DNA of 64,000 nt from Pagrus major (lineage: Eukaryota; Chordata; Actinopteri; Spariformes; Sparidae), in assembly GCF_040436345.1 (NCBI RefSeq), contig NC_133230.1, positions 23,942,197 to 24,006,196 on the forward strand, read 5' to 3'. Of the stretch, positions 11,067 through 63,700 are shown in pieces (within the stretch, counting starts at the first letter, position 1; the number at the start of each line of letters is the position of its first letter). The translations under genes were made by a program, and so were the position numbers. The notes under the pieces are model-generated. The model was not told the origin of the DNA and made no database searches. It saw only the letters and a program-made list of their open reading frames with translations.

Positions 11067-11615
11067 TCAGTCCAGGTCTATGGATATACAGCGGCACTGT
11101 TTGACGCGCTGGATGCGCTTCTTCTTGGTGGGTGGCTGCTGGTCCGGACAGTTCAAAGTAAACGTCATGGTGGTGAAACGCTTCGGCTTGCAAAACGAGC
11201 AGGACTGGAAGGCACCCTCCTCCCTGCGGATGTGCCTGGGGATGTAAAAGGAGTTGCACTGTCCGTAACAAAAGCGGTTGATGATGGTGCGGCTGACGCA
11301 GCCCTCCTCGTGGATGGTCTGCTTGAGGGGCTGCGTCTTGCACCAGTCCCGTTTCAAATACTGGCGCTCCGTCACATGTAAAGCTTCCTGGCTGGACTCC
11401 AGCACCTCGTCGGCTGGTGAGGATGCGCCCTGCCTCTGCCGGGACCCGGAGCCCGCCTGCGGAGGCTGCGGTTGCTGCTCCGATTCGTTTGGGTTGTTTT
11501 TGTCAGGATGAGGAATGGCGCCTTGTGAACCTCGGTTTCTCTTGGAATCCACGGGAGAGGATAGCAGCCCAATGATGAAAACCATACTGCAGAAGATACG
11601 CGTCGAGTTGGCCAT
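11067..11615 (-). CDS. grem1: Gremlin-1, secreted BMP antagonist (complete)
   Basis: Gremlin-1 binds BMP2/4/7 outside the cell and blocks receptor binding; in vertebrates it acts in limb, kidney and bone patterning. The single coding exon gives 182 residues, against 184 in human. The N-terminus (MANSTRIFCSMVFIIGLLSS) is a signal peptide. A low-complexity, basic, Pro/Gln-rich linker follows, with an N-glycosylation site (NES, about residue 43). From EVLESSQEALHVTERQYLKR onward it carries the DAN-family cystine knot: WCKTQPLKQTI, GCVSRTIINRFCYGQC, SCSFC and KQCRCISIDLD, with all expected cysteines. The C-terminal half is nearly identical to mammalian gremlin-1 and differs from gremlin-2. The ATG is preceded by a splice acceptor (CTTCTCCCCAAG), so the leader is in a separate upstream exon. 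The gene is convergent with fmn1, as in other vertebrates. Confidence 0.98.
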   Translation of the reverse strand: MANSTRIFCSMVFIIGLLSSPVDSKRNRGSQGAIPHPDKNNPNESEQQPQPPQAGSGSRQRQGASSPADEVLESSQEALHVTERQYLKRDWCKTQPLKQTIHEEGCVSRTIINRFCYGQCNSFYIPRHIRREEGAFQSCSFCKPKRFTTMTFTLNCPDQQPPTKKKRIQRVKQCRCISIDLD

Positions 11616-12067
11616 CCTTGGGGAGAAGAAGAAAATAATTCATCACCTTCACCGTTTCAACGCTGGACGGGTTACGCACAGCTGTCAAAGCTTTTACGCT
11701 GCGTAAAAGCGCACAGAAACAGCTTGCCTTTTTGTAACGCTGCATGCAAAGCGAGACTGAAGTGCAAAAACAATCGACTGTATATTTGAAAAACCTTAAT
11801 CTAGACATTTGAGTGAAAACTACAATGTTTCGTGTATTATGCACAAAACTTTATACAACAATCAATTGGCGCAGGGGCGCTCCAGGTTTAGCCGAAAGCA
11901 AGTAAACTTTCTTAAATGTCTTAAATAACTACCTACGTATCCACACATGCTCACCATTGGATGACAAGCATTCAGTTTTGCCATTTCTATCAGCATTGAA
12001 CTAAATAAACTTTAAATGAAAGTGGCGGAAGACGGTGCGCGGGGAGAAACAGTCCAAATTCCCTCAC

Positions 12068-14758: not shown

Positions 14759-17700
14759 CTATAAATCTACAGGCTTGGTAGCAGACAGCAGTCGTCCTTG
14801 GTTCAGAGGGTTTCTAGGTGAACCTCTGTAATGGGTCATGTCCTTCTCCACTACCTGCTGCACAAGAGGCTTCTGAGCTCCTGCTGGTTCAGAAGAGGCC
14901 ATTTTGGTCTTTGGTTGGACCTTGTTTGTGACGTCGCCCAGAGCACAGACCTTTGCTTTACGGGCCAAAGTGCTTGGCTTTTTGGGTGGGACTGGTGGTG
15001 GTCTCTTTATGGACTGAACGCTGAGGGACGGTCCCACCTGTGCATCTTCCTGGTAGGGCTGAAGCTGTGGGTGAGGGGAGAGGCCGCTTTCCATGCTCAC
15101 TGCCTTCACCACTGGACTGCTCTGACTGGTGAGGAGTTTTGCATTTCTGGTGGGTCTCCTGTTGTCTCCTAGGAGAGAGTTCATCCTGCGGACAGTCTGA
15201 CGTACCGGGGTGCGCTGGAACTTGAGCGGCGATCGGATGTGTGAGGCCTTGGGGCCTCTGGGAGAATGAAGGGTGAGCTTGTTGAAGTGTTCGATGTGTT
15301 CTGCCACCCTACGCTTCTCGGTCTCCAGGCTGCGTGGCGAGAGGGGTTGCTGGTTTTGGATTTTGGTACCAATCTCTTGGGACGATTCATCGCTTTCATG
15401 TACCGAACTGGCTATAGTACCGATCTCATCTCCGAGTTCTAGGTCCAGCTTGTATGGAGTGGACTGCAGGCCGGAGGTGACGCCCACTCTGAAGAGAGCA
15501 GGACTCTGGATGTCCAGAGCTTCAATCAACCTGCTGCAGTTCACCTGCCCCACCTCCCGGTCACTCTCTTCCACAGTAAAGCTGCTGTGGCTACTGGTGG
15601 GAGCAGCACATGGAAAACCTTTATCAGCCTTTGCTACTGGACTACAGTAAACACCAGACTCAAAAATTACACTATCAATATGCAGAGGTGACAAAGCCGC
15701 AATTTCAATCTGGCCAAAGGTAATGTTCTGATCGTCAGCCAGAAGGCTCTGCTGAGCTGGGAACCTTGAGGCCTGGAGGACGGTAGGAGTCTTAGGTGGA
15801 GGGAGCAGGATGCTGTCTGATAGTTTGGTTTGGTCTGTCCCCGTGGAGCTGCAGGGCTCCTGGATGGCAGCCTGGAGATCACTGCCCAACTCTGTGAGGG
15901 TCTTTATTTTCAGCAGGGTGGGACCAGTCAGGCTCTGGGCCTCAGTGATGGAGCTCTCGCTCTCCAGGCTCTCGGCACTGGAAGCACAACACAGCTTCTT
16001 AGGAAGGCTGGCTACCGCTGGGGGCTTTGATACGACGATGGCTGGTTCAGACTTGTAGCCGCTCTTTAGGCACATGTTCATAGGCGTGTCCGTGAAAGAT
16101 CCTCCGCCGAAAGCCTGGGCTCCGACAGGAGTCTCCCCACTCCACGAGGTATGGTGGACACTTGAGTCACACTGGGGGGTCAGCAAGTTGTCTTCTGACT
16201 TACTGATGTACTTGGAGCCTGGAAAACAAAGTGGAATATTAGCAGATATTACAACTAAAAATACTTCTTTTTTTTTTTTTTTAAGTTTCTTCGCTTGATT
16301 TCTTTATTTGTTACTCACTTTTGGATTCAGCCTTTCTAGGCTGAACTGACGGACTGAACTCAGTCTCTTTGGTGAAACGAAAACTGGTGGTGCTCTCCTG
16401 AGTGGCAAGTCGCCAGCCGATGGACTCAGATCCCTTTATCACCAGCATGGAATGAGAAATGGAAGATGAAAGAAAGTAGGAGGATTAAGCTTGAGGGTAT
16501 TATTTGGTTAAAGAGGACCCCATAGATGTTACCCAAAATGCACCATTAATATGTTAATATTGTTAACTGTTGAGGTTAGTTCTTCAGAGGATGACAAAAA
16601 TCACTCAGAAGAAACAAGATATCAGATTCGTTGGTCAGCAACCTTTTATTAAGTGAAGAATATACATTGACTAAAGAGCATTAGAAAGTTAAACAGCTCA
16701 TCTTGTGTACCCCAACAGCTTACAATATATTTGATGTATTTACTGATATATAATCACATTCTTTCACCTGAGTGTTTAACATTGTAAATCACTGAAAATT
16801 GGGCACAGGGAGTATCCTATGGCTTTGTACCATACAACAATTTATTCAGTAACATGAGAAGTACAGGTCCTTTATAAGCCATGCATGCATTAGCTTAAAT
16901 GTGTTAGCTACTGAAAGTAAACTTAGAATGTTACACAATGAAAAAAGTGCTAGTGTGCAACAATTTACCCCAACATAAAACATCCTATGTGCAAATGTGT
17001 TACTCGATTTTAATACAGTTAATTACAGCATTTGAATGCCTGGATGCGCTTGATTAACGCCATTTTATCTGTGAACCAGAGGAATGTGAAGTCTGAGACG
17101 CAACCACACTTACAGCGTCTTTGCTGCTCTTCCCCAGGCTAAAACGCAAGCGCAGAGATTTGCGTGGTGCTTCTTTTTTGCCGGCTTTGGGAGAAAAACA
17201 GCCAGCCTTCCCAGATTCAACTCTGAAACAGATATTAAAACAATTATCAACATGAGATGAGTCAGTACCATGCAACTCTGAGGATAATATTTCAGAACTC
17301 TTATCTCACTGTATAGTGAAGCATAGTGGGAAATGCATGGCTGTGTGGCAAAATGCATCTCTCCATAAGAGACAAATAACAAGAAATTTAAGGATAGCAG
17401 GAGGAAGAAATAAATGTGTACCTGTTGACAGCATGTCTGTTGCTGAGTCGCCGGCTCTTCCTCCTTACAGACGTAGCCGATTGCCTTCTAGACCTGCCTG
17501 CCGGCGACAGGATATTCTGGGAAGACTCCAACACCCCTGAAGCACTGTAAGCTACAATATATAGAAGGGGGAAAAAATATGTTAACTTACCCACAAGCTT
17601 TCAAGATAGCACAACAGTTGATGCCCATTTGATTAAACACTCATCAATACCTGATCCAGGAGTGGAAGTGCCGCTGAACAAAGAATTTGGAAGTAAATCA

Positions 17701-20698
17701 ATCCCAAGGTTCTTTTTGACAGATCTACGTTTCTTGTTCGAGAATCCAAAAGAGTGACCAGATTCCAGAGGAAGCTTTCGTTTTGAGGAAGGCGTTGCAA
17801 TCACAGGAGTTGCGGAGGAAAAGACTGGCAAAAATCAGAAGAGAATTAATGTCTTTGAATGCGCAGGATTTGCCGTTTTTGTATTTAAAAGCATTGCAAA
17901 GATGATTCTGAGCCAAGGCACTGAGAATTAGCATTCATTGTAAAGGATGATCCATGCAAATGGAAGGCAGAAAAGCAAAGACAAGACATTTGAAACCAGG
18001 CATAATTTCACATCATTCATATGACTTCTTATTCATGATCAAGGCCAATGTGAATCTATTTTATTTGAAGCGCTCCAGAAGACAGAAAGCTCATTGTTTT
18101 ATGTGCACAGCAGATGGATTACTTCAGTATCATCATGCTATATGACAGGCAACATCATCTCATCCGACCACAGTACCTACCAAAACTGTCTGACTGGGGG
18201 GCTTTTGTTGGTGTTCTATTAGTTTTTATCTTATTCAGAGCACCATTGACCATATCTGAAATATGAGACAAACCGGACCATAGAAACAGTATTTACTGAC
18301 TAAAGCTGCTGCAAAACATTATTCATTCATTGGTAATGCGATACAGGGCTCTATTTTACATGGATATGTCTGTCTACTGTCACAAAATATTTCCAGAGTG
18401 GTTGCACCAGATGAGTTACAGTTTTCACCAAACAAATAATAGTCTTACCTCCAAAGCTGCGTCTGTGTCTCTTCTTCATCCCCGAGTTCAAGTCCAGCTC
18501 CTCAAGTTCATCATGAGTAGGGGACAGAACTCCCGCCTCACAGCCCATCATGGCTGGAATTTTCTCTTGAAGACACTGTGGCAACACACCTGGGACACAC
18601 AGACAGTCAAATATTAGCTAAAAAGCTACAGTACGGAATAACACTATGACTTGCAGGTAAAATGCCTCAAGTCAGGTCATACCAAAGCTGTGGGCATTCT
18701 CTATGAAGCAGTGTACTATGGCTGCCTGCAGCTTGAGGCGTCTCTCGGTGTTGGCGTTCATCTTCTCTGTACCGTCTCCAAAGTGAAGGAGGTTTGGGGC
18801 CAAGATTACAGACAAATTACTGCTGTCCATCTTATTCTCTGCACTCCTGTGATTAAACAAAGAAAAAACAGTAATGTTTTTATGAAGACCAAGATAAAAA
18901 GATGAAGAAAAAAAACATCTTAAACAAGGGATGGATGCTTCATAATAATCCAGAGAGAAGAATCCAACTAAATTAAACTCTGGCACCTCTTAGACACGTT
19001 GTTGAGGAAGTCAAAAAAGTGACGCAGGGCGGTTAGGTTTCTGTCTGGCAGCACACAGGACAGCAGAATGGTGGCAGACGTCCTGTCCTCCACTGTGGGG
19101 AGCTGCTGGGCCTTGAGAAAGGCCTCCTGCAGCTCTGTGGTCAGCACCGGCTCCGGCAGCTCCCTGAAGAACTGCTTCACCAGACCGGCCACATCACAGG
19201 GGAGTGCAGTGGACAAGCACTCCTCACCAGCGTCCAATTTTGCCTGAACAAACAAAACAGCTCTGTTGTGTTAGACCTTTCTCAGAGTCAAGGGCCCTCA
19301 GTGAATACAAGGTCGACTTCAGCCATCACTCACCCTGAGCGCTTTCAGGCGAATGACAGAGCCAGATTTTCTGAACAGGCCCTCGGTGTCGACGTGCGCC
19401 AGCAGTTTCATGCATGCGTCGACCAGAAAGCTAAGAGGGTAGGGAAATCTCATTAGCACAAAATGTACAAGGTAGGACATGAAATGACTTGCCAAATGTA
19501 AGCTCAAGTAAATAAGCATTTCGACTTGCCTTGGCACGCTCCCACATTCCATATTATAGTACGGTAAGTTCTCCAGGGACACCCCGAAAACCTTTGTCTG
19601 AGGGAACAATCAAACAATGAAAAATAGGACATTAAAATCCAATATTGATCACATTTAAACAGGCTACACGATAAGGAGGAGGAAAAATGTCCTGTCGGCT
19701 GGTAATTCATTCTAAAATCGCGTGCCAGCAGCATCACGGACCTGAGGTATTTGCCTCAGTCATGTTTTTTTTTTTTTTTTACTGCTATATTAAAAATGCT
19801 TATGGGTCAGTTTGATGGCTGGCAGCCAAACATTCCTATTGTTTCTGAGAACAACGATAAAAGCTACAACAGCCACTTAATGTTGGCTTTTAACCTCAAA
19901 GATCTTAATCTGTTCAGTGTGTTTTTTAGAGAAGAAGAATTACTTAATTTCGGTTCAACATTTCTTCACCAAGTCTGAGTTCAAGTGTGCTGTCTCTTAC
20001 CACATCTTAGGGCATTCCCTACAAATGCAGAAGTTCAGCATTCATTTGAAAACGTCACAAAGTCTCTTCCAACAAATCTTGTGACTCCTGTTAGCCATGA
20101 GTGACGTGCACAGGAAGAAACAAGGCTTTCAGAGTTCATTTGAAAATCAACCGACATTAAATTCAGTTATGGTCTTGCTAAAGTATGGGCTTTGCTTGCC
20201 AAAATGTCCAAAAGTCCACAAGAAAGTGCCACAAAGATTTATGAGAAAACATTGCCCTTTTTGTGTTTTGTTAGACTTGGCTTTTTGTTGCTGGTAAAGA
20301 AGTTTATGGTGTGAATAATCACGAGAACAGCCAAACAAAGCATCTGCACTGACTGACATGGGGTGACAACAGCCTGTGAACAAATGGGTTTCATCAGTGG
20401 GGGCATGCTTTCAGTAATATGCTAATCTGATTCAACAGATTAACAATAGTATGTCCAAGGCTGATACTGTGTGAACTTGCTGAATCTGCCATAACAGACT
20501 GTTATCAAGTCACAAATAAAATAAGTAAATTATGCTAAGTTACACTGGTTAAAGTTTTCCTTTACTTACCGAGCTGCTGGCTGCAGACTTGCAGCTGGCT
20601 GCTTTGTTTTTGTTCCAGTTCTTTGTCTTTATCCCGTACGCTGTGCGGAGATGCTGCACAGCCACTAAACGCATCACATTCTTCTCCATGACTTTCAT
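14759..20698 (-). CDS. arhgap11a: Rho GTPase-activating protein 11A (complete, 12 exons)
   Basis: ARHGAP11A is a RhoA-directed GAP with roles in mitosis, cytokinesis and neural progenitors. Coding exons in transcript order: 20570-20698, 19530-19597, 19334-19430, 18987-19243, 18683-18846, 18449-18589, 18181-18255, 17651-17824, 17422-17551, 17114-17222, 16319-16433, 14759-16218. They sum to 2919 nt, or 972 residues plus stop (human 1023). The RhoGAP domain covers about residues 44-245, with the arginine finger in GLFRKSGS (Arg86), [18 protein letters not shown] and [17 protein letters not shown]. Family-specific segments follow: [62 protein letters not shown] and the C-terminal [11 protein letters not shown]...TKPVDL. 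These match mammalian ARHGAP11A in order. The first ATG ([24 protein letters not shown]) aligns with the family start. The second intron has a GC donor, because only GC-AG splicing restores VPSFLVDAC. Confidence 0.97.
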
Positions 20699-21651: not shown

Positions 21652-22560
21652 TAGGGTGACCAGATCCAAATAAGCCAAATGTGGGACATAGGGTATGTTT
21701 GTGTGGGACAATGTGGGACACGTCACCAATTTATGGACGTAGTCTAAAATGTTGATATATTGTCTATCTAACTTTAAAAAATAAACATTTCTATTCTGTC
21801 TGGTAGCTCATAACATCTACGCTTTACCTTCTGGTTGATTTAGTAGCACACAATAGGACTATACAGGTTACAGGTAAGACCTTTATTTACCATGTGAAGG
21901 ACTTAATTATTACAGTTTAAGCAGCCTTGTTTATATTTTAGAAGCATCGTGTGTGTTTCTTTCACTTCGTGGGGGACCCATTAGTGTTTTTAATTCTCTC
22001 AAACATCTCTCCACGGAGGCAGGTGCGAGCACATCTGGAACTACAGCTGCTGATTTTGTTCGACCACATGGCTTTTTTTTTTTTTGCCATCTCCGAGTCT
22101 GGGAAAATGACGGGTGCTAGCTTACAACCTCAGTCTGCTGACCTGTATGGCTGGGAGTGCTGCACACCGTGGTAAATGCTGGTGATTTCAGCTGCTGTTA
22201 TCTTATCTGTCTGGCAGTCATCTTTGGGTTTCAGGAGGAATGTTTTCATAGATTGGCTCGTATCTTTTTGAGCCACACGTTTCTTATGAGACTCGCAGGT
22301 ACTGTGTCGCTTCAGGTCGTGTGAAATTGGGAAATAACTCGGTGAGAATCGTAAAGAGTCTCCTAGTCTCTGTTGTAGCTGCATCGTTGTTTTTTTGTGG
22401 TAGTTTCCAATATATTCTGCCAAAATCTGCATCCCTTTGACAGCTGCTGACACAGACCGGTGTAGTGCCGAAAAGAGACTGCTTGCCGAAAAACGACTGC
22501 CCCCGACGGGAACGCGCATCAGTTCAGAGGAAGTGGGCGTAGGTCTACTACGGGTCAGCT
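21652..22560 (-). mobile_element. Probable degraded transposon region
   Basis: It begins with the common fish repeat start TAGGGTGACCAGATCC and contains a decayed transposase-like ORF (22130-22519, minus). It has no host exon structure. The right end is near CCCCCGACGGGAACG. Boundaries are uncertain and no target duplication was found. Confidence 0.35.
22130..22519 (-). pseudogene. Fragment of a transposon-encoded protein (zinc-finger/hAT type)
   Basis: A 129-residue open frame. The segment SHDLKRHSTCESHKKR resembles the C-x-x-H end of the degenerate zinc finger near the N-terminus of many fish hAT-type transposases. The following KDTSQSMKTFLLKPKDD and TAAEITSIYHGVQHSQPYRS fit the linker and start of the next domain. 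There is no zinc-finger start, catalytic core or hAT dimerisation region, so it is a fragment. Family assignment rests on general resemblance only. Confidence 0.35.
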
Positions 22561-22730
22561 GGCAGACGCAGCACCGAGAGAAATGTTTTTTTTACTGTGC
22601 AGTCCTGTAGCCCAAGTGAAGAGGCTACGGAAAAAGAACGGCGCAGATAAAAAAAGTAACCTGATGTTTCCATAATGTAGGCTAGTTGTCAACAATTGAT
22701 GAGGGTAGATGCTTTACCTTGCCACTTTTA

Positions 22731-22760: not shown

Positions 22761-22934
22761 CAATGTGATTTTACACCGCTTGGATCTATAAATAAAGTCA
22801 TAATTCAATATCCCTGTTTCAGTGATTTTATAACGAGGATTAGGAAATCAATGCAGAAAAGAATGCAGGAGTGTTTCCACGTCACATTAGATAGCAATCA
22901 TATAACACATACTAAGAAATTAGTAAGTGCTATC

Positions 22935-23105
22935 AGAGGTGGGTAATAACGATTTACATTTACTTCATTACATTTACTTAAGTAACTTTTTGGATAACTT
23001 GTACTTTTAAGAGCATAATTATGAATACAATAATGCAGTATATATAGAACTGTAGGCTAACTAACGGATTGCCTTTACATTCTGCATAACATTCTCTGTG
23101 TTTGC
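22935..23105. mobile_element. Left part of a fish repeat that hosts the palindromic array
   Basis: The text GAGGTGGGTAATAACG, TTTACTTAAGTAACTTTTT and GTACTTTTAAGAG is typical of a widespread fish DNA-transposon repeat. Similar text in reverse sense resumes at 26430-26530, after the array (TAAATGTAACTCCCAAAAAG, TTTCTCAAGTAAAAGT). The array therefore appears to sit inside one such element. Confidence 0.45.
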
Positions 23106-26100
23106 CAGGTGCACGTACAGTGAATTTGGTTAATATCACTGTGTCACTGTGCAGTCACTTTCCGGCAGGCCCTGCCGAAAAGTGACTGCACCCTGTAACT
23201 CTGGATTGGGAGGGGTTACATTCTCTATCTTTTCAGCATTAATAGTAGAGGAAACCAGGTGCATGTACAGTGAATTTGGTCAATATCACTCCTTGCAATA
23301 AGGACTTACAGGGTGCAGTCACTTTTTGGCAGGGCCTGCCGAAAAGTGACTGCACCCTGTAACTCTGGATTGGGAGGGGTTACATTCTCTGTCTTTTCAG
23401 CATTAATAGTAGAGGAAACCAGGTGCATGTACAGTGAATTTGGTCAATATCACTCCTTGCAATAAGGACTTACAGGGTGCAGTCACTTTTTGGCAGGGCC
23501 TGCCGAAAAGTGACTGCACCCTGTAACTCTGGATTGGGAGGGGTTACATTCTCTGTCTTTTCAGCATTAATAGTAGAGGAAACCAGGTGCGTGTACAGTG
23601 AATTTGGTCAATATCACTCCTTGCAATCCAGAGTTACAGGGTGCAGTCACTTTTCGGCAGGGCCTGCCAAAAAGTGACTGCACCCTGTAACTCTGGATTG
23701 GGAGGGTTACATTCTCTGTCTTTTCAGCATTAATAGTAGAGGAAACCAGGTGCATGTACAGTGAATTTGGTCAATATCACTCCTTGCAATAAGGACTTAC
23801 AGGGTGCAGTCACTTTTCGGCAGGGCCTGCCGAAAAGTGACTGCACCCTGTAACTCTGGATTGGGAGGGGTTACATTCTCTGTCTTTTCAGCATTAATAG
23901 TAGAGGAAACCAGGTGCGTGTACAGTGAATTTGGTCAATATCACTCCTTGCAATCCAGAGTTACAGGGTGCAGTCACTTTTTGGCAGGGCCTGCCGAAAA
24001 GTGACTGCACCCTGTAACTCTGGATTGGGAGGGGTTACATTCTCTGTCTTTTCAGCATTAATAGTAGAGGAAACCAGGTGCGTGTACAGTGAATTTGGTC
24101 AATATCACTCCTTGCAATCCAGAGTTACAGGGTGCAGTCACTTTTGACTGCACCCTGTAACTCTGGATTGGGAGGGGTTACATTCTCTGTCTTTTCAGCA
24201 TTAATAGTAGAGGAAACCAGGTGCATGTACAGTGAATTTGGTCAATATCACTCCTTGCAATAAGGACTTACAGGGTGCAGTCACTTTTCGGCAGGGCCTG
24301 CCGAAAAGTGACTGCACCCTGTAACTCTGGATTGGGAGGGGTTACATTCTCTGTCTTTTCAGCATTAGTAGTAGAGGAAACCAGGTGCATGTACAGTGAA
24401 TTTGGTCAATATCACTCCTTGCAATAAGGACTTACAGGGTGCAGTCACTTTTCGGCAGGGCCTGCCGAAAAGTGACTGCACCCTGTAACTCTGGATTGGG
24501 AGGGGTTACATTCTCTGTCTTTTCAGCATTAATAGTAGAGGAAACCAGGTGCATGGACAGTGAATTTGGTCAATATCACTCCTTGCAATAAGGACTTACA
24601 GGGTGCAGTCACTTTTCGGCAGGGCCTGCCAAAAAGTGACTGCACCCTGTAACTCTGGATTGGGAGGGGTTACATTCTCTGTCTTTTCAGCATTAATAGT
24701 AGAGGAAACCAGGTGCATGTACAGTGAATTTGGTCAATATCACTCCTTGCAATAAGGACTTACAGGGTGCAGTCACTTTTCGGCAGGGCCTGCCGAAAAG
24801 TGACTGCACCCTGTAACTCTGGATTGGGAGGGGTTACATTCTCTGTCTTTTCAGCATTAATAGTAGAGGAAACCAGGTGCATGTACAGTGAATTTGGTCA
24901 ATATCACTCCTTGCAATCCAGAGTTACAGGGTGCAGTCACTTTTTGGCAGGGCCTGCCGAAAAGTGACTGCACCCTGTAACTCTGGATTGGGAGGGGTTA
25001 CATTCTCTGTCTTTTCGGCATTAGTAGTAGAGGAAACCAGGTGCATGTACAGTGAATTTGGTCAATATCACTCCTTGCAATAAGGACTTACAGGGTGCAG
25101 TCACTTTTCGGCAGGGCCTGCCGAAAAGTGACTGCACCCTGTAACTCTGGATTGGGAGGGGTTACATTCTCTGTCTTTTCAGCATTAATAGTAGAGGAAA
25201 CCAGGTGCATGGACAGTGAATTTGGTCAATATCACTCCTTGCAATAAGGACTTACAGGGTGCAGTCACTTTTCGGCAGGGCCTGCCAAAAAGTGACTGCA
25301 CCCTGTAACTCTGGATTGGGAGGGGTTACATTCTCTGTCTTTTCAGCATTAATAGTAGAGGAAACCAGGTGCATGTACAGTGAATTTGGTCAATATCACT
25401 CCTTGCAATAAGGACTTACAGGCTCTGCCGAAAAGTGACTGCACCCTGTAACTCTGGATTGGGAGGGGTTACATTCTCTGTCTTTTCAGCATTAATAGTA
25501 GAGGAAACCAGGTGCATGGACAGTGAATTTGGTCAATATCACTCCTTGCAATAAGGACTTACAGGGTGCAGTCACTTTTCGGCAGGGCCTGCCAAAAAGT
25601 GACTGCACCCTGTAACTCTGGATTGGGAGGGGTTACATTCTCTGTCTTTTCAGCATTAATAGTAGAGGAAACCAGGTGCATGTACAGTGAATTTGGTCAA
25701 TATCACTCCTTGCAATAAGGACTTACAGGGTGCAGTCACTTTTCGGCAGGGCCTGCCGAAAAGTGACTGCACCCTGTAACTCTGGATTGGGAGGGGTTAC
25801 ATTCTCTGTCTTTTCAGCATTAATAGTAGAAGAAACCAGGTGCATGTACAGTGAATTTGGTCAATATCACTCCTTGCAATCCAGAGTTACAGGGTGCAGT
25901 CACTTTTTGGCAGGCTCTGCCGAAAAGTGGATTGGGAGGGGTTACATTCTCTGTCTTTTCAGCATTAATAGTAGAGGAAACCAGGTGCATGTACAGTGAA
26001 TTTGGTCAATATCACTCCTTGCAATCCAGAGTTACAGGGTGCAGTCACTTTTTGGCAGGCCCTGCCGAAAAGTGACTGCACCCTGTAACTCTGGATTGGG

Positions 26101-26347
26101 AGAGGTTACATTCTCTGTCTTTTCAGCATTAATAGTAGAGGAAACCAGGTGCATGTACAGTGAATTTGGTCAATATCACTCCTTGCAATCCAGAGTTACA
26201 GGGTGCAGTCACTTTTTGGCAGGGCCTGCCGAAAAGTGACTGCACCCTGTAACTCTGGATTGGGAGGGGTTACATTCTCTGTCTTTTCAGCATTAATAGT
26301 AGAGGAAACCAGGTGCGTGTACAGTGAATTTGGTCAATATCACTCCT
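23106..26347. repeat. Palindromic tandem array: about 20 units of roughly 163 bp
   Basis: About 20 head-to-tail units were counted by the recurring GGATTGGGAGGGG block. Most spacings are 163-165 bp, with three shortened units of 143-145 bp. Each unit has two halves. The first is a palindrome: GGGTGCAGTCACTTTTCGGC and its reverse complement around one central base, a 47-bp inverted repeat. In the units that read CAATCCAGAGTTACAG it extends to 77 bp. The second half is a spacer of about 85 bp containing TTCAGCATTAATAGTAGAGG, GAAACCAGGTGCATG and ACAGTGAATTTGGTCAATAT. There are two unit types: about 7 with the long palindrome and about 12 whose left arm reads CAATAAGGACTTACAG. The first and last units merge into flanking repeat DNA. 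There is no credible coding function; near-identical 66-residue frames on the plus strand follow from the repeat. Confidence 0.95.
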
Positions 26348-26540
26348 CGATGACAGCTGTCCCTCCTTTCTTCACATCCCATTCTGCTAGACACTGCAGC
26401 CTATTAACATAATCTTTATATTTTTATACACAGTCATCTTCATAACTAATAAATGTAACTCCCAAAAAGGTAAGTACACCAGTAAATGTTTCTCAAGTAA
26501 AAGTAAATGTTCACTACTGTCTTCAACCACTAGGTGGAAG
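26348..26540. mobile_element. Right part of the repeat hosting the palindromic array
   Basis: After the last CAATATCACTCC the sequence leaves the array unit and runs into CTAATAAATGTAACTCCC, GTAAGTACACCAGTAAATG and TCTCAAGTAAAAGTAAATG. This mirrors the left flank at 22935-23060. The right end is unclear. Confidence 0.4.
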
Positions 26541-27164
26541 CATCACCATCCATGTTTCAGCAAACTCTTGAGCATACCAGTGTGGGTGGAGTGGCATGAC
26601 ACAGGATCACACAGGGAGGTGGTGTACACAGGTGTCACACTACATAATGACAGTCACTCATTATTTTGTGTACTAGCAGAGCGGTGAGCATGACAGACCA
26701 TGGTTGAATGGACAAGGAGTGAATACAAATTGAGAAAACCAGTGGAAAAGGTAAATCTCAAGGTAAATTCTGAAAATTGGCAATATCTAAAAGACAAAGC
26801 AGAAGAGTGTCTTTAGATCACAACCTCTATCTCCCTGAACTTTAACTTTCTATTTGCTTGAAGTAACAGTTCTTTGTCAATGTTTATCCGCTGTATTGTC
26901 TGGTTTATGATGATGATCTGAAGTTAAAAAGATGCTAACATGTTGATGCTGATGTGACTGCTATTTGGGTATAAGAACAGTAGGCTGCATGTTTTTAAAA
27001 TGGTAGACAGGGGTCCAAAAATAATTTGAAATGATATATATATATATACATATATGTATATATGTATATATGTATGCATTGTTTAACTCCACAAAGTTAT
27101 CCAAATCCCTGCATTTATCTGCTCATGCTGCTTGTTTTCTGCCGGTCAAAAACAGTACAGGAGA
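26541..27164. other. Intergenic region between the array and the actc1 3' end
   Basis: No coding or RNA gene was seen. The region contains a TA/TATG microsatellite (27033-27077) and otherwise unremarkable AT-rich DNA. Confidence 0.6.
27033..27077. repeat. (TA)n/(TATG)n microsatellite
   Basis: Alternating TA and TATG/TACA units about 190 bp downstream of the actc1 stop codon. Confidence 0.9.
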
Positions 27165-27263: not shown

Positions 27264-29271
<2,008 letters not shown>

Positions 29272-32573: not shown

Positions 32574-33041
32574 CAGTGGTAGAAAATGAGTAATTACTGA
32601 AGTAAGGAATTTGCTTCACTTATAGTATTTCCATTCGCTGCCTCTTTATACCCCTACTTAGTTCCAATGGAAACATTGTCCAACATTTATCAACATTTAG
32701 TTCTACTTTACAAATGAAGATTTCTCATACAAAACATATGATACACTTATAAGTGTCTTTTTATACATTCAATTTCACAACAGGATTTAAAATACTTGAA
32801 ATTACAGTACATTAACAGTAAAATGCAACTTACACATTAATGCATTTGTTGTATTTCATATAATGATGAGGTGATAGATAGAGAGAGAGAGGGATAGATA
32901 GACAGGTACATAGATAGATACATCATCATTTATTTGTTGATTATTATAGTTATAGTTTAGCAGAGAATGAAATACTTAATTAAAGTAAAAGTAACTTAAA
33001 GATGTACTTCAGTAAATGTAATTAGTTGCTTCCCACCACTG
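32574..33041. mobile_element. hAT-like non-autonomous element
   Basis: The left end is CAGTGGTAGAAAATGAGTA and the right end is GCTTCCCACCACTG, which are inverted to each other. The interior has the TACTTCAGTAAATGTAATTAG type of text shared with the element at 60970-61918. No matching target duplication was found, so the copy is old or truncated. A GATA/GAGA microsatellite lies inside it. Confidence 0.55.
32871..32922. repeat. GATA/GAGA microsatellite
   Basis: Mixed GATA and GA units inside the hAT-like element upstream of eif2ak4. Confidence 0.85.
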
Positions 33042-60738: not shown

Positions 60739-63700
60739 TTAGCGCGGCGTCCAGTCGTTGCCCATGCTCAGCTTGGCCCTGGGGATGGTCATCTTGTCCG
60801 CGCAGGGGGAGCTCATCTCCGGAGAGAAGTGGATGATGCCGCAGTCGTTCTTCACATTCTGGAACTTGTTCTCCTTGGAGGGCTCCATGTAGACCACCGA
60901 GTTCTTGTTCACATGCTTCTTCAGGATCACAGTCTGAGCAGGACAGGAAAAAGAACATAGCCCCTTGTTCAGTGGTGGAAAGTAGTACATATTGAGCTAC
61001 TTGTTCTTAACTTGACTATTTCTATTGTATGCTACTTTACACTTTTGCTAGATTTCAGAGGGAAAGATGGTTCTTTTTTTTTTCTTTTTTTTACTCCACG
61101 GCATTTTCCAGCTTTAGTCACTAGTTACTTTTATCCCAAAATGTTTGTGAAAAAATTTCTGGAGCTGCACAGTAGAACAGCGATGCAGCATTCTCCTGAA
61201 CAACTGAACTAGATGCTGACACAGTGAAGATTTCAGCTTAAAAAAGGGTGTAAGCTGTTCAGCTATAAGCCTTTGCCCGTCTGAGGTGGGTGCATGTGCT
61301 CAACTGCTCATCAAGCATGTAAATAACGTCTATTCAAAATCAGTTTGGGATCTCAGGGCTTACGGAGACTTGGATTATGCCAGACGAGATGTTTTTACTT
61401 CAGCTGTTTCGGAGAATGCTGCAACACTGTTTTGCTGTGAAGCTCTAGAAACATGGTGGTGAGCAGATAATGACTGGATTTTCTCGTTTGGGTGAACTTA
61501 TCCTTTAAAATAAAGATTTTAAACAATAAATAATATGACAAGCTTTTAAAATACAACGCCTTGTTTATGACTAAACCAACTGCTTTGGCCTCTGACATCT
61601 TTCAAACAGCCGTGTAGTTGGGATCACATGTCAGGTAAATAGTGATTCAGTCTCAGTTGGTTTCATTTCAACAAATGTTCAAATGATCCAATATCTCAGC
61701 AAAAAGGCAAAGTAATGTATTTAAAACTGTGTATAAAGTAGTTCAAACTAGCTCCAGCGGCGACAACGGTAAAATGCTGATTATGCATTGATGCTTCAGT
61801 ATTAATAATCTATTGATGTCATATATAATAATATCTAAGTACTTTTACTTTAACTACATTTTGCTGGTAGTGGTTACTTTTACTTAAGTAAAGGATCTGA
61901 ATACTTCTTCCACCACTGCCCTTGTTGTCAGATTGAAGCCATAACTCAGGTCAGATGAATCCTTTCTAATTTTTTTCACCTTGCACTTGTTTGTTCTGAC
62001 AATATACTGACAAATTCGGATCTTCTGAGGCTACAATCTCATTTCATGGTTGAGTTGTAGATCCCCATGATGGACATGACCTTGTTCCAGTTAAAAGTGC
62101 AGGGCAAAGGGGAAACGGCGTTAATCTTAACGTCATGACGGCTTTAGTGCTGCATGTAGCAGAAGCAGGAAGATCAAGGAGCATTTTTAAGCCAGCGCTT
62201 GAAAATAATGAGCCGATTAACGTGATTTACAGATCTCTTCTCACCTTCTTTGGTGCACTGTAGCAGGACATCTGCACCCACTTCTTTTTCTTGTTGATAA
62301 GTAACGCCACGATGAGGAAGATGATGATGGCCAGCAGGAGACCTGCCAGGATCCAAGCTGCTGATTGGTAGATGAGGGCCATCTCTGTTTGGCTGGGATA
62401 ATTCTCACCCAGACCTGGCTCATCTGAGGGACACAGACAGCATCGATATCGGATATCTTTCCCACAGAAAGCTTTTCCCCCCCCCCATTTAATCTGAAAA
62501 CAGTTTATTTCTTCGCTTCACAGCTTGGTATTAAACATGGAAAAATAAACGCTGGGTGTCTCAAGAGAGATCATGTTTAGCCCGCGTCCATTTATCATTA
62601 TCGTTTTAGTGCATCATCAGTTTATTTCCCTTTCACTCATTTATCAATGAATCACAAAACACCCTCCATCAGCATAAACATTCACAGACTCTAAACATTG
62701 GCAGGGGGTGTAGGCTACACAGCCATGCCAATAACTGGGATGAATCCATGATGGGTTGAGGATGTTTGAAAAAGGAGGCAGGGGAAGCTAAATAAAGCAC
62801 TGGCATCACTGCATGCGGTTAGCCAAAACTTCTTGGTTAACCAGCTCCTTGAGTAAGACCAAATCTTCCTCTGTTATGATGGTCACCAAGACAAGCCACT
62901 GGGCGGTGGCAGCTAAATGCGCCCAACAACAATATCTGTTATATTGGAGAGCATGAACAACTTAGGGGCTATATGTGAGGGGGAATATGTGGATGATTTA
63001 ATGAGCAGGTACCTGTATCAGCGATGATGGGCGGTACAGTGACGGTGGTGATCCACGCTGCACTCTCCACTGTAACAGAGGTCGTTGTCTTGGGGGCGTT
63101 GGTAGACACCATCACCGGCACCGACGTTGTTATTTCTGTTCAGACAAGAATAAGATCCATTACTGATATCGGCGGTGTAACACAAAGCATTCCAGACATA
63201 ACTGTGAGGGAATGTATCAACTCCCTGGTGTCTAAATTGATAAGGTGTGTTTATAGGAACTTCCACTGTACTGCTTTTTAAAAAAAGGCATTACGTGAAA
63301 AGCTCTGTTTTCCACCGGGCGAATAACAAAAACAAAGGCCTGGTGAAACGGCTCCATGTCAGGGTGAACAATGGGTGCCTCTGCTGAGGTTTTCCTCTAT
63401 AGGAAAAGCTGACATGGAGCTTTGCCTTCCTGTGCCGCCACAGAGAGGGGGCGATGCGGGCCGATTCAGTCGGGGACAGGAAACACGTGTGAATGTGCGG
63501 ATGCTTGAGGAATGTTTTTGCTCCGAGCGGTGCCCGTGTGTGCATGTCACATGGAATGGTGTTGCCAACGGTCGTGTTTGCCTAAGAAGCGCCAGAGTGG
63601 CTGTGTCTAACGAACAAACACATACGCACACAGTCAGCGTAGGAAACCCCTCAGTTACGCCCTCTTTTTGACATGTAGCGCTATAAATTATAACTTTCCC

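What the first reader, a model, noticed from the sequence alone, without database searches (positions are those of the whole stretch)
23106..26347. Tandem array of about 20 units, each built around a 47-77 bp near-perfect palindrome
A 163-bp unit repeated head to tail would be an ordinary satellite, but every unit contains a long inverted repeat with a single-base centre. The array could thus form about 20 hairpins or cruciforms in a row on either strand, or as RNA. Seven units have arms of about 38 bp (CAATCCAGAGTTACAG type). The rest have about 23 bp plus a diverged outer arm. The spacer half resembles text just left of the array (ACATTCTCTGTGTTTGCCAG, GCACGTACAGTGAATTTGG). This suggests that a foldback element landed in an older repeat and the pair was then amplified together. 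Possible roles (small-RNA source, chromatin boundary, fragile site) are speculation.
Basis: partly seen in the sequence, partly recalled or inferred. Interest (0 to 1): 0.7.

Follow-up and report, generated by a model that had tools for sequence, protein, structure and literature searches.

The report
Transposon-like array of repeated DNA palindromes
Beside a muscle actin gene in what looks like a fish genome, about twenty copies of a 164-letter unit, most of them carrying a long DNA palindrome, sit between transposon-like ends; it is probably a transposon remnant with an expanded internal repeat, and the palindrome exists in two versions that may record a DNA-copying error that mends hairpins.

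Summary
The array is real: 21 units (the last one truncated) at 23084-26347, consensus 164 bp. Long palindromes are present in 18 of 21 units: 5 have 38-bp arms with one mismatch, 11 have 31-bp arms with one or two. The 'text just left' is the first, diverged unit.

The flanks align to each other as inverted repeats (score 70; 0 of 2000 shuffles, 5 of 1974 random window pairs reach it), though not over the outermost 9 bp; the left end resembles another terminus at 33041. No 8-bp target duplication was found, so hAT membership is not claimed.

The left arm has two versions that differ at four sites within 6 bp, always together. In all 12 short-arm units the unit's own right arm is a complete template for the long version; the reverse change has none. 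One replication template switch would explain this. Three 19-21-bp deletions also fall inside the palindrome.

Best reading: a non-autonomous transposon remnant with an internal palindromic minisatellite, shaped by hairpin-driven replication errors. No function was tested. The host genome search did not complete, so copies elsewhere are unknown.

The parts
22934..23083 (+). Left flank, terminal-inverted-repeat-like: begins CAGAGGTGGGTAATAACG
   Evidence: Inverted alignment with the right flank, score 70, 0 of 2000 dinucleotide shuffles, 5 of 1974 random window pairs reach it; the alignment starts 9 bp inside the left end. 77% over 57 bp to a second terminus at 33041-32987, E 8e-7. That such ends are hAT-like is recalled.
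23049..23083 (+). Possible decayed remnant of right arm plus unit start (an older, pre-U00 unit)
   Evidence: In-register alignment: 0 of 5000 mononucleotide shuffles, 3 of 60,659 window 35-mers as good; the unanchored local test was not significant, 581 of 1000. Post hoc.
23084..23213 (+). U00: first, diverged unit; lacks 21 bp of spacer and 14 bp of the left arm
   Evidence: 10-12% divergent from the others
23214..26267 (+). U01-U19: 19 units, consensus 164 bp; mean pairwise divergence 2.7% (1.5% without the four-site block)
26268..26347 (+). U20: truncated last unit, spacer half only
26186..26262 (+). Example of a long-arm palindrome (U19): 38-bp arms with one mismatch, single-base centre at 26224
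23797..23853 (+). Example of a short-arm palindrome (U04): perfect 28-bp arms around centre 23825, outer left arm mismatched
26348..26519 (+). Right flank, inverted-repeat partner of the left flank; reads CAGTAGTGAACATTTAC on the minus strand
   Evidence: no 8-bp target duplication with the left side (read)

Best explanation
A non-autonomous DNA-transposon remnant with hAT-like ends, about 3.6 kb (22934-26519), whose middle is an expanded minisatellite of a 164-bp unit. Each unit is an 87-bp spacer plus a palindrome. SHOWN: the array, its palindromes, the inverted similarity of the flanks, the two-state left arm, and deletions inside the palindrome. INFERRED: the array grew by unequal exchange or replication slippage. 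The palindrome folds into a hairpin on single-stranded DNA at the fork. When the nascent strand folds back on the other arm, one template switch rewrites the imperfect outer left arm into an exact complement of the right arm (quasipalindrome correction); skipping the hairpin gives 19-21-bp deletions. The corrected arm then spread among units by duplication or conversion. It most likely has no selected function.
For: Array and units. Inverted flanks and a second similar terminus in the window. Columns 87, 88, 89 and 92 split the 19 units U01-U19 identically (7 against 12), no intermediates, out of 16 variable columns. All four changes restore pairing with the outer right arm, whose 17-bp partner word is intact in 19 of the 20 units U00-U19 (all but U17, where it is deleted); chance for four random changes 1/81. 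In 12 of 12 short-arm units the unit's own right arm fully templates the long-arm word; for the reverse direction the longest inverted template is 5 nt and covers 3 of 4 changes. All three 19-21-bp deletions of U01-U19 lie in the palindrome. In-register remnant of the right arm left of U00. Published precedent for arm homogenisation by template switching: PMC8604942 (abstract), PMC3820800, PMC8794818, PMC7954356 (passages).
Against: No 8-bp target duplication (AGTGCTAT against TCTTCAAC), and no copy of AGTGCTAT within one mismatch on the plus strand at 26348-26956. The flank alignment leaves out the outermost 9 bp of the left end, and 5 of 1974 random window pairs score as high. Direction of the left-arm change is not proven: U00, the only outgroup-like unit, has neither form. 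All five 38-bp-arm units still carry a mismatch near the centre (columns 114/128), so a switch, if it happened, did not mend the whole arm or the mismatch came later. Column 114 and the block occur in all four combinations, so exchange or recurrent CpG change blurs the history. The remnant at 23049-23083 is post hoc and failed the unanchored test. U00's 21-bp gap lies in the spacer, not in the palindrome. No regular higher-order pattern: lowest shift p 0.04 of seven tested.
Confidence: 0.5

Rival explanations
1. Ordinary local minisatellite: the array arose in place from unique DNA, the hAT-like flanks being unrelated old insertions. The palindrome simply promoted slippage.
For: No target duplication; the flank alignment misses the outermost 9 bp, 5 of 1974 random window pairs score as high, and similar termini occur elsewhere in the window; no related sequence in the six collection searches that were answered, although by their descriptions none of those collections holds fish genomes.
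Against: Flank-to-flank inverted alignment reached by 0 of 2000 shuffles; the two flanks abut the array directly.
Confidence: 0.28
2. The palindrome is itself a short foldback transposon that inserted into a spacer repeat, and the long-arm form is the original; the short-arm form is decayed.
For: Long symmetric arms; 7 of the 19 units U01-U19 hold the fully complementary left arm.
Against: Four changes within 6 bp with no intermediates and no complete template; by eye no target duplication around the palindrome; the first, diverged unit already holds a palindrome.
Confidence: 0.12
3. A transcribed chain of hairpins that feeds Dicer: an endogenous hairpin-siRNA or miRNA-like locus, perhaps through read-through from the actin gene at 27264-29258 on the minus strand, which points at the array.
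For: Very stable hairpins (plus strand folded; palindromes fold on either strand); the array lies about 0.9 kb downstream of the actin stop codon on the minus strand. Sub-threshold Rfam microRNA matches have low E-values (best 7.8e-08, mir-1954).
Against: No Rfam family reaches its gathering score; the best sub-threshold match has 44.5 bits against a gathering score of 99, which I read as what any long stem gives. No transcription data. The stems vary and break freely.
Confidence: 0.04
4. Assembly artefact: copy number or unit order invented or collapsed.
For: Tandem arrays are error-prone in assembly (general knowledge).
Against: Units differ at 16 variable columns, so they are not simply one unit copied by an assembler; exact number and order remain unverified.
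Confidence: 0.04

Closest known systems
MITEs with internal satellites (Xstir/Xmix and miDNA4 of Xenopus; tandem-repeat MITEs of Donax), seen in passages and a table of the reviews PMC9659126 and PMC12628747; Donax only as a title in a reference list
   Same: Short tandem array inside a non-autonomous element with inverted ends; growth of the internal array proposed from replication or repair errors.
   Different: miDNA4 is given there as Tc1/mariner; here the ends are hAT-like and unproven. PMC12628747 says that satellite monomers often contain inverted repeats and palindromes, but the passages I saw describe no MITE-borne array built on a long palindrome.
Tetris / TIR-220 of Drosophila virilis (PMC4079207, passages)
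   Same: A foldback-like element whose tandem repeats (about 220 bp) seed satellite-like arrays.
   Different: Tetris repeats sit within its terminal inverted repeats; here one array fills the middle and most units are themselves palindromic.
Satellites with intra-monomer dyad symmetry (TmSat2 of Tribolium madens, Trichogramma brassicae 385-bp satellite; PMC13081366, passages)
   Same: A long inverted repeat within each monomer of a tandem array. The authors call long ones not so common.
   Different: TmSat2 is a highly abundant satellite with about 300-bp imperfect arms; here one 3.3-kb array is known, with 28-38-bp near-perfect arms, beside genes.
Short-range template switching / quasipalindrome correction (PMC8604942 abstract; PMC3820800, PMC8794818, PMC7954356 passages)
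   Same: Clustered substitutions that convert an imperfect into a perfect inverted repeat, and arm homogenisation.
   Different: In what I saw these are inferred between strains, species or reconstructed ancestors, or scored in reporter assays; here both states sit side by side within one array.
Angel MITE of zebrafish (Izsvak 1999, as told in a passage of PMC12628747; paper itself not seen)
   Same: Teleost MITE able to pair with itself on one strand.
   Different: No tandem palindromic array described in the passage read.

Membership tests
hAT superfamily DNA transposon (non-autonomous) | 8-bp target-site duplication (recalled) | tested here: not met
   AGTGCTAT before 22934 against TCTTCAAC after 26519; no plus-strand copy within one mismatch at 26348-26956
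hAT superfamily DNA transposon (non-autonomous) | Terminal inverted repeats of the CAGNGGTG type (recalled) | tested here: inconclusive
   Left CAGAGGTGGG, right CAGTAGTGAA; inverted flanks score 70, 0 of 2000 shuffles but 5 of 1974 random pairs, outermost 9 bp not in the alignment
hAT superfamily DNA transposon (non-autonomous) | Mobilised by a related transposase; other copies in the genome | not tested
   Host genome search unanswered in 8 attempts
Minisatellite / satellite array | Head-to-tail near-identical units | tested here: met
Minisatellite / satellite array | Array length variable between individuals | not testable with these tools
   needs population or long-read data
Quasipalindrome correction by template switching | Clustered changes that make one arm the exact complement of the other | tested here: met
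   four of four changes, one partition, no intermediates; own right arm is the template in 12 of 12 short-arm units. Met for the outer arm only: a mismatch at columns 114/128 remains in all five 38-bp-arm units
Quasipalindrome correction by template switching | Imperfect form ancestral | tested here: inconclusive
   No complete template for the reverse change; U00 has neither form; right-arm remnant at 23049-23083 is post hoc
microRNA precursor | Match to a known Rfam family at its gathering score | tested here: not met
   0 matches in the window; best sub-threshold 44.5 bits against 99
microRNA precursor | Transcription and Dicer-sized reads | not testable with these tools
   no RNA data

The most novel reading that the evidence does not exclude
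The array is an active hairpin factory: up to 18 long stems transcribed as one RNA (for instance by minus-strand read-through from the neighbouring muscle actin gene) and diced into abundant small RNAs, with template switching continually restoring paired stems across units, so that hairpin quality is maintained by mutation bias rather than by selection.
Probability: 0.04. Interest if true: 0.75.

Novelty: new member of a known kind. Interest (0 to 1): 0.33.

Why it matters
Both states of a quasipalindrome, imperfect and corrected, sit side by side in one 3.3-kb array. That would be a natural test bed for template-switch mutation: outgroup and population sequences would give direction, rate and recurrence. 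If the element is multicopy, it would also show how transposon-internal repeats with strong hairpins expand. Otherwise it is an ordinary repeat remnant.

Tried and rejected
Related sequences elsewhere: exact patterns in viral contigs and genome contigs, blastn 'distant' in phages and plasmids: no match in 6 of 6 searches. By their descriptions none of these collections holds fish genomes, so this says nothing about the host. Paper text search for six sequence words: 0 papers. Rfam: none at gathering score. tRNA scan: none.

Considered and set aside: (1) microRNA cluster, because the sub-threshold Rfam hits (87 rows up to E 1, best E 7.8e-08, less than half of its gathering score) fit any long stem; (2) regular higher-order repeats: of seven shifts the lowest p is 0.04, uncorrected; (3) the TGCCGAAAARNGACTGC pair at 22466-22500 as source of the palindrome: BLAST E 0.12, too weak; (4) flank-to-unit similarity by free local alignment: none, 581, 561, 588 and 943 of 1000 shuffles as good; only the anchored test of the left flank stood out, and its 35-bp query was chosen; (5) a paper search that needed hAT, teleost, palindrom and three more terms together gave 0 papers. 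Listings showed no title about such an array; most of the papers listed were not opened.

Rows dropped: U00 and U20 were left out of the divergence, partition and shift counts.

Full report
OBSERVATION. The array is real. Four Tandem Repeats Finder rows of period 164 together cover 23149-26347 but for 2 bp. Splitting at a conserved anchor gives 21 units, 23084-26347: U00 (diverged), U01-U19 and a truncated U20. Consensus length is 164 bp. Among the 19 units U01-U19 mean pairwise divergence is 2.7% over 171 pairs, 1.5% without the four-site block described below. Eighteen of 21 units hold a palindrome of score 14 or more; 17 of these have a single-base centre. Five units have 38-bp arms with one mismatch (U03, U05, U11, U18, U19); eleven have 31-bp arms with one or two mismatches; U00 has 21-bp arms with one mismatch (25 bp with three); U06 has lost its tip; U14 and U17 have lost part of an arm; U20 stops before the palindrome. 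Predicted hairpins are far more stable than shuffles, in five of five RNA and four of four DNA folds. Outside the array a (TA)n microsatellite near position 600 scores higher than any unit (41 against at most 35) and a TA-rich site at 27053 scores 16; the other sites at score 9 or more reach at most 10.

SURROUNDINGS. The window looks like a teleost genome (my judgement from gene content and the style of repeats; no tool named the species). Gene order: gremlin-1 at 11067-11639 minus (best PDB match Gremlin-1, E 9e-73); a RhoGAP domain at 18968-19270 minus, which with the open frame at 14759-16303 (no Pfam hit) I take by recall for arhgap11a; the array; an actin gene at 27264-29258 minus (actin Pfam hits in three of three exon-like frames tested; best PDB matches are muscle actins; end of the frame); GCN2/eIF2AK4 from 37678 plus. 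The array therefore lies about 0.9 kb beyond the actin stop codon, apparently in intergenic DNA.

TRANSPOSON-LIKE FLANKS. The left flank begins CAGAGGTGGG at 22934. The two flanks align to each other as inverted repeats, score 70; 0 of 2000 dinucleotide shuffles and 5 of 1974 random window pairs reach that, and the alignment starts 9 bp inside the left end. The left terminus is 77% identical over 57 bp to 33041-32987 (E 8e-7), where the sequence ends in the same style (CAGTGGTGGG on the minus strand); a third such end lies at about 61918 (only short matches to the left flank). I recall such ends as typical of fish hAT elements; no library match was made. The 8-bp duplication expected for hAT was not found, so I do not file the element under hAT.

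THE TWO LEFT ARMS. Sixteen columns vary among U01-U19. Columns 87, 88, 89 and 92 share one identical split: U03, U05, U06, U11, U17, U18 and U19 against the other twelve, with no intermediate. The four changes (AATAAGGACTTAC to AATCCAGAGTTAC) make the outer left arm the exact complement of the outer right arm, whose 17-bp partner word is intact in 19 of the 20 units U00-U19; U17 has lost it by deletion. In 12 of 12 short-arm units the unit's own right arm is a complete template for the long-arm word. For the reverse change the longest inverted template is five nucleotides and covers three of the four sites. A single template-switch event therefore explains short-to-long; long-to-short needs an untemplated block. 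Caveats: once a long arm exists, conversion from a neighbouring unit can spread it; U00 has neither form; all five 38-bp-arm units keep a mismatch at columns 114/128 near the centre, so the whole arm was not mended or the mismatch came later; and column 114 with the block occurs in all four combinations, so units have exchanged sequence or the CpG site has mutated repeatedly.

DELETIONS. The three 19-21-bp deletions among U01-U19 (U06, U14, U17) all fall in the palindrome, which makes up just under half of the unit (77 of 164 bp). With three events this is suggestive only. U00 differs: it lacks 21 bp of spacer and 14 bp of left arm.

WHERE THE RIGHT ARM CAME FROM. The 35 bp immediately before U00 (23049-23083) align, in register, to the right arm plus unit start. 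In an end-anchored test 0 of 5000 mononucleotide shuffles and 3 of 60,659 other 35-mers of the window score as high. The query was chosen after an unanchored local test that was not significant (581 of 1000 shuffles), so this is a lead only. If right, the right arm is native to the element and the left arm was made from it, against a separate foldback insertion.

MECHANISM. Most likely a non-autonomous transposon remnant whose internal repeat expanded by unequal exchange or slippage, with hairpins at the fork causing deletion and arm correction. Published work describes the same mutation type: homogenisation of inverted-repeat arms in yeast strains (PMC8604942, abstract), quasi-palindrome conversion in yeast (PMC3820800, passages), template switching in great apes (PMC7954356, passages) and creation and maintenance of RNA hairpins (PMC8794818, passages). 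Arrays inside MITEs or foldback elements are known (PMC9659126, PMC12628747, PMC4079207, passages), and satellites with long intra-monomer inverted repeats are known but called not so common (PMC13081366, passages).

WHAT COULD NOT BE DONE. The host genome search was unanswered eight times. The collections that answered hold, by their descriptions, no fish genomes. Copy number, age, polymorphism, transcription and assembly correctness are therefore open.

VERDICT. A real and tidy structure, of a known kind. Its one distinctive point is the coexistence of imperfect and corrected palindromes within one array, which outgroup sequences could turn into a direct test of template-switch mutation.

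Noticed in passing
22466-22500: TGCCGAAAAGAGACTGC and TGCCGAAAAACGACTGC in tandem (18-bp step), one and two mismatches from the palindrome arm; BLAST E 0.12, so possibly chance.
   Followed up: partly
22130-22591 (minus): Open frame of 153 aa that resembles, by recall, the zinc-finger start of fish hAT-type transposase genes; no Pfam hit at E 0.01 and only two PDB hits at E 0.11 and 0.27.
   Followed up: partly
32987-33041 and about 61840-61918: Two further stretches ending in CCACCACTG, in the style of the left flank of the array; the first matches it at 77% over 57 bp, the second only in short pieces.
   Followed up: partly
23136-23151: TCACTGTG twice in a row in U00, where the other units have more left-arm sequence; could be an old excision footprint or a deletion with filler.
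   Followed up: no
array columns 114 and 128 (e.g. 23970-24008): The only CpG of each palindrome arm is TpG on the left in 7 of 19 units and CpA on the right in 4 of 19, which fits CpG methylation and decay; the two states also look like inversions of each other.
   Followed up: partly
11067-11639, 14759-19270, 27264-29258 (minus); 37678 onwards (plus): Gene order gremlin-1, RhoGAP gene (arhgap11a by recall), muscle-type actin, GCN2.
   Followed up: partly
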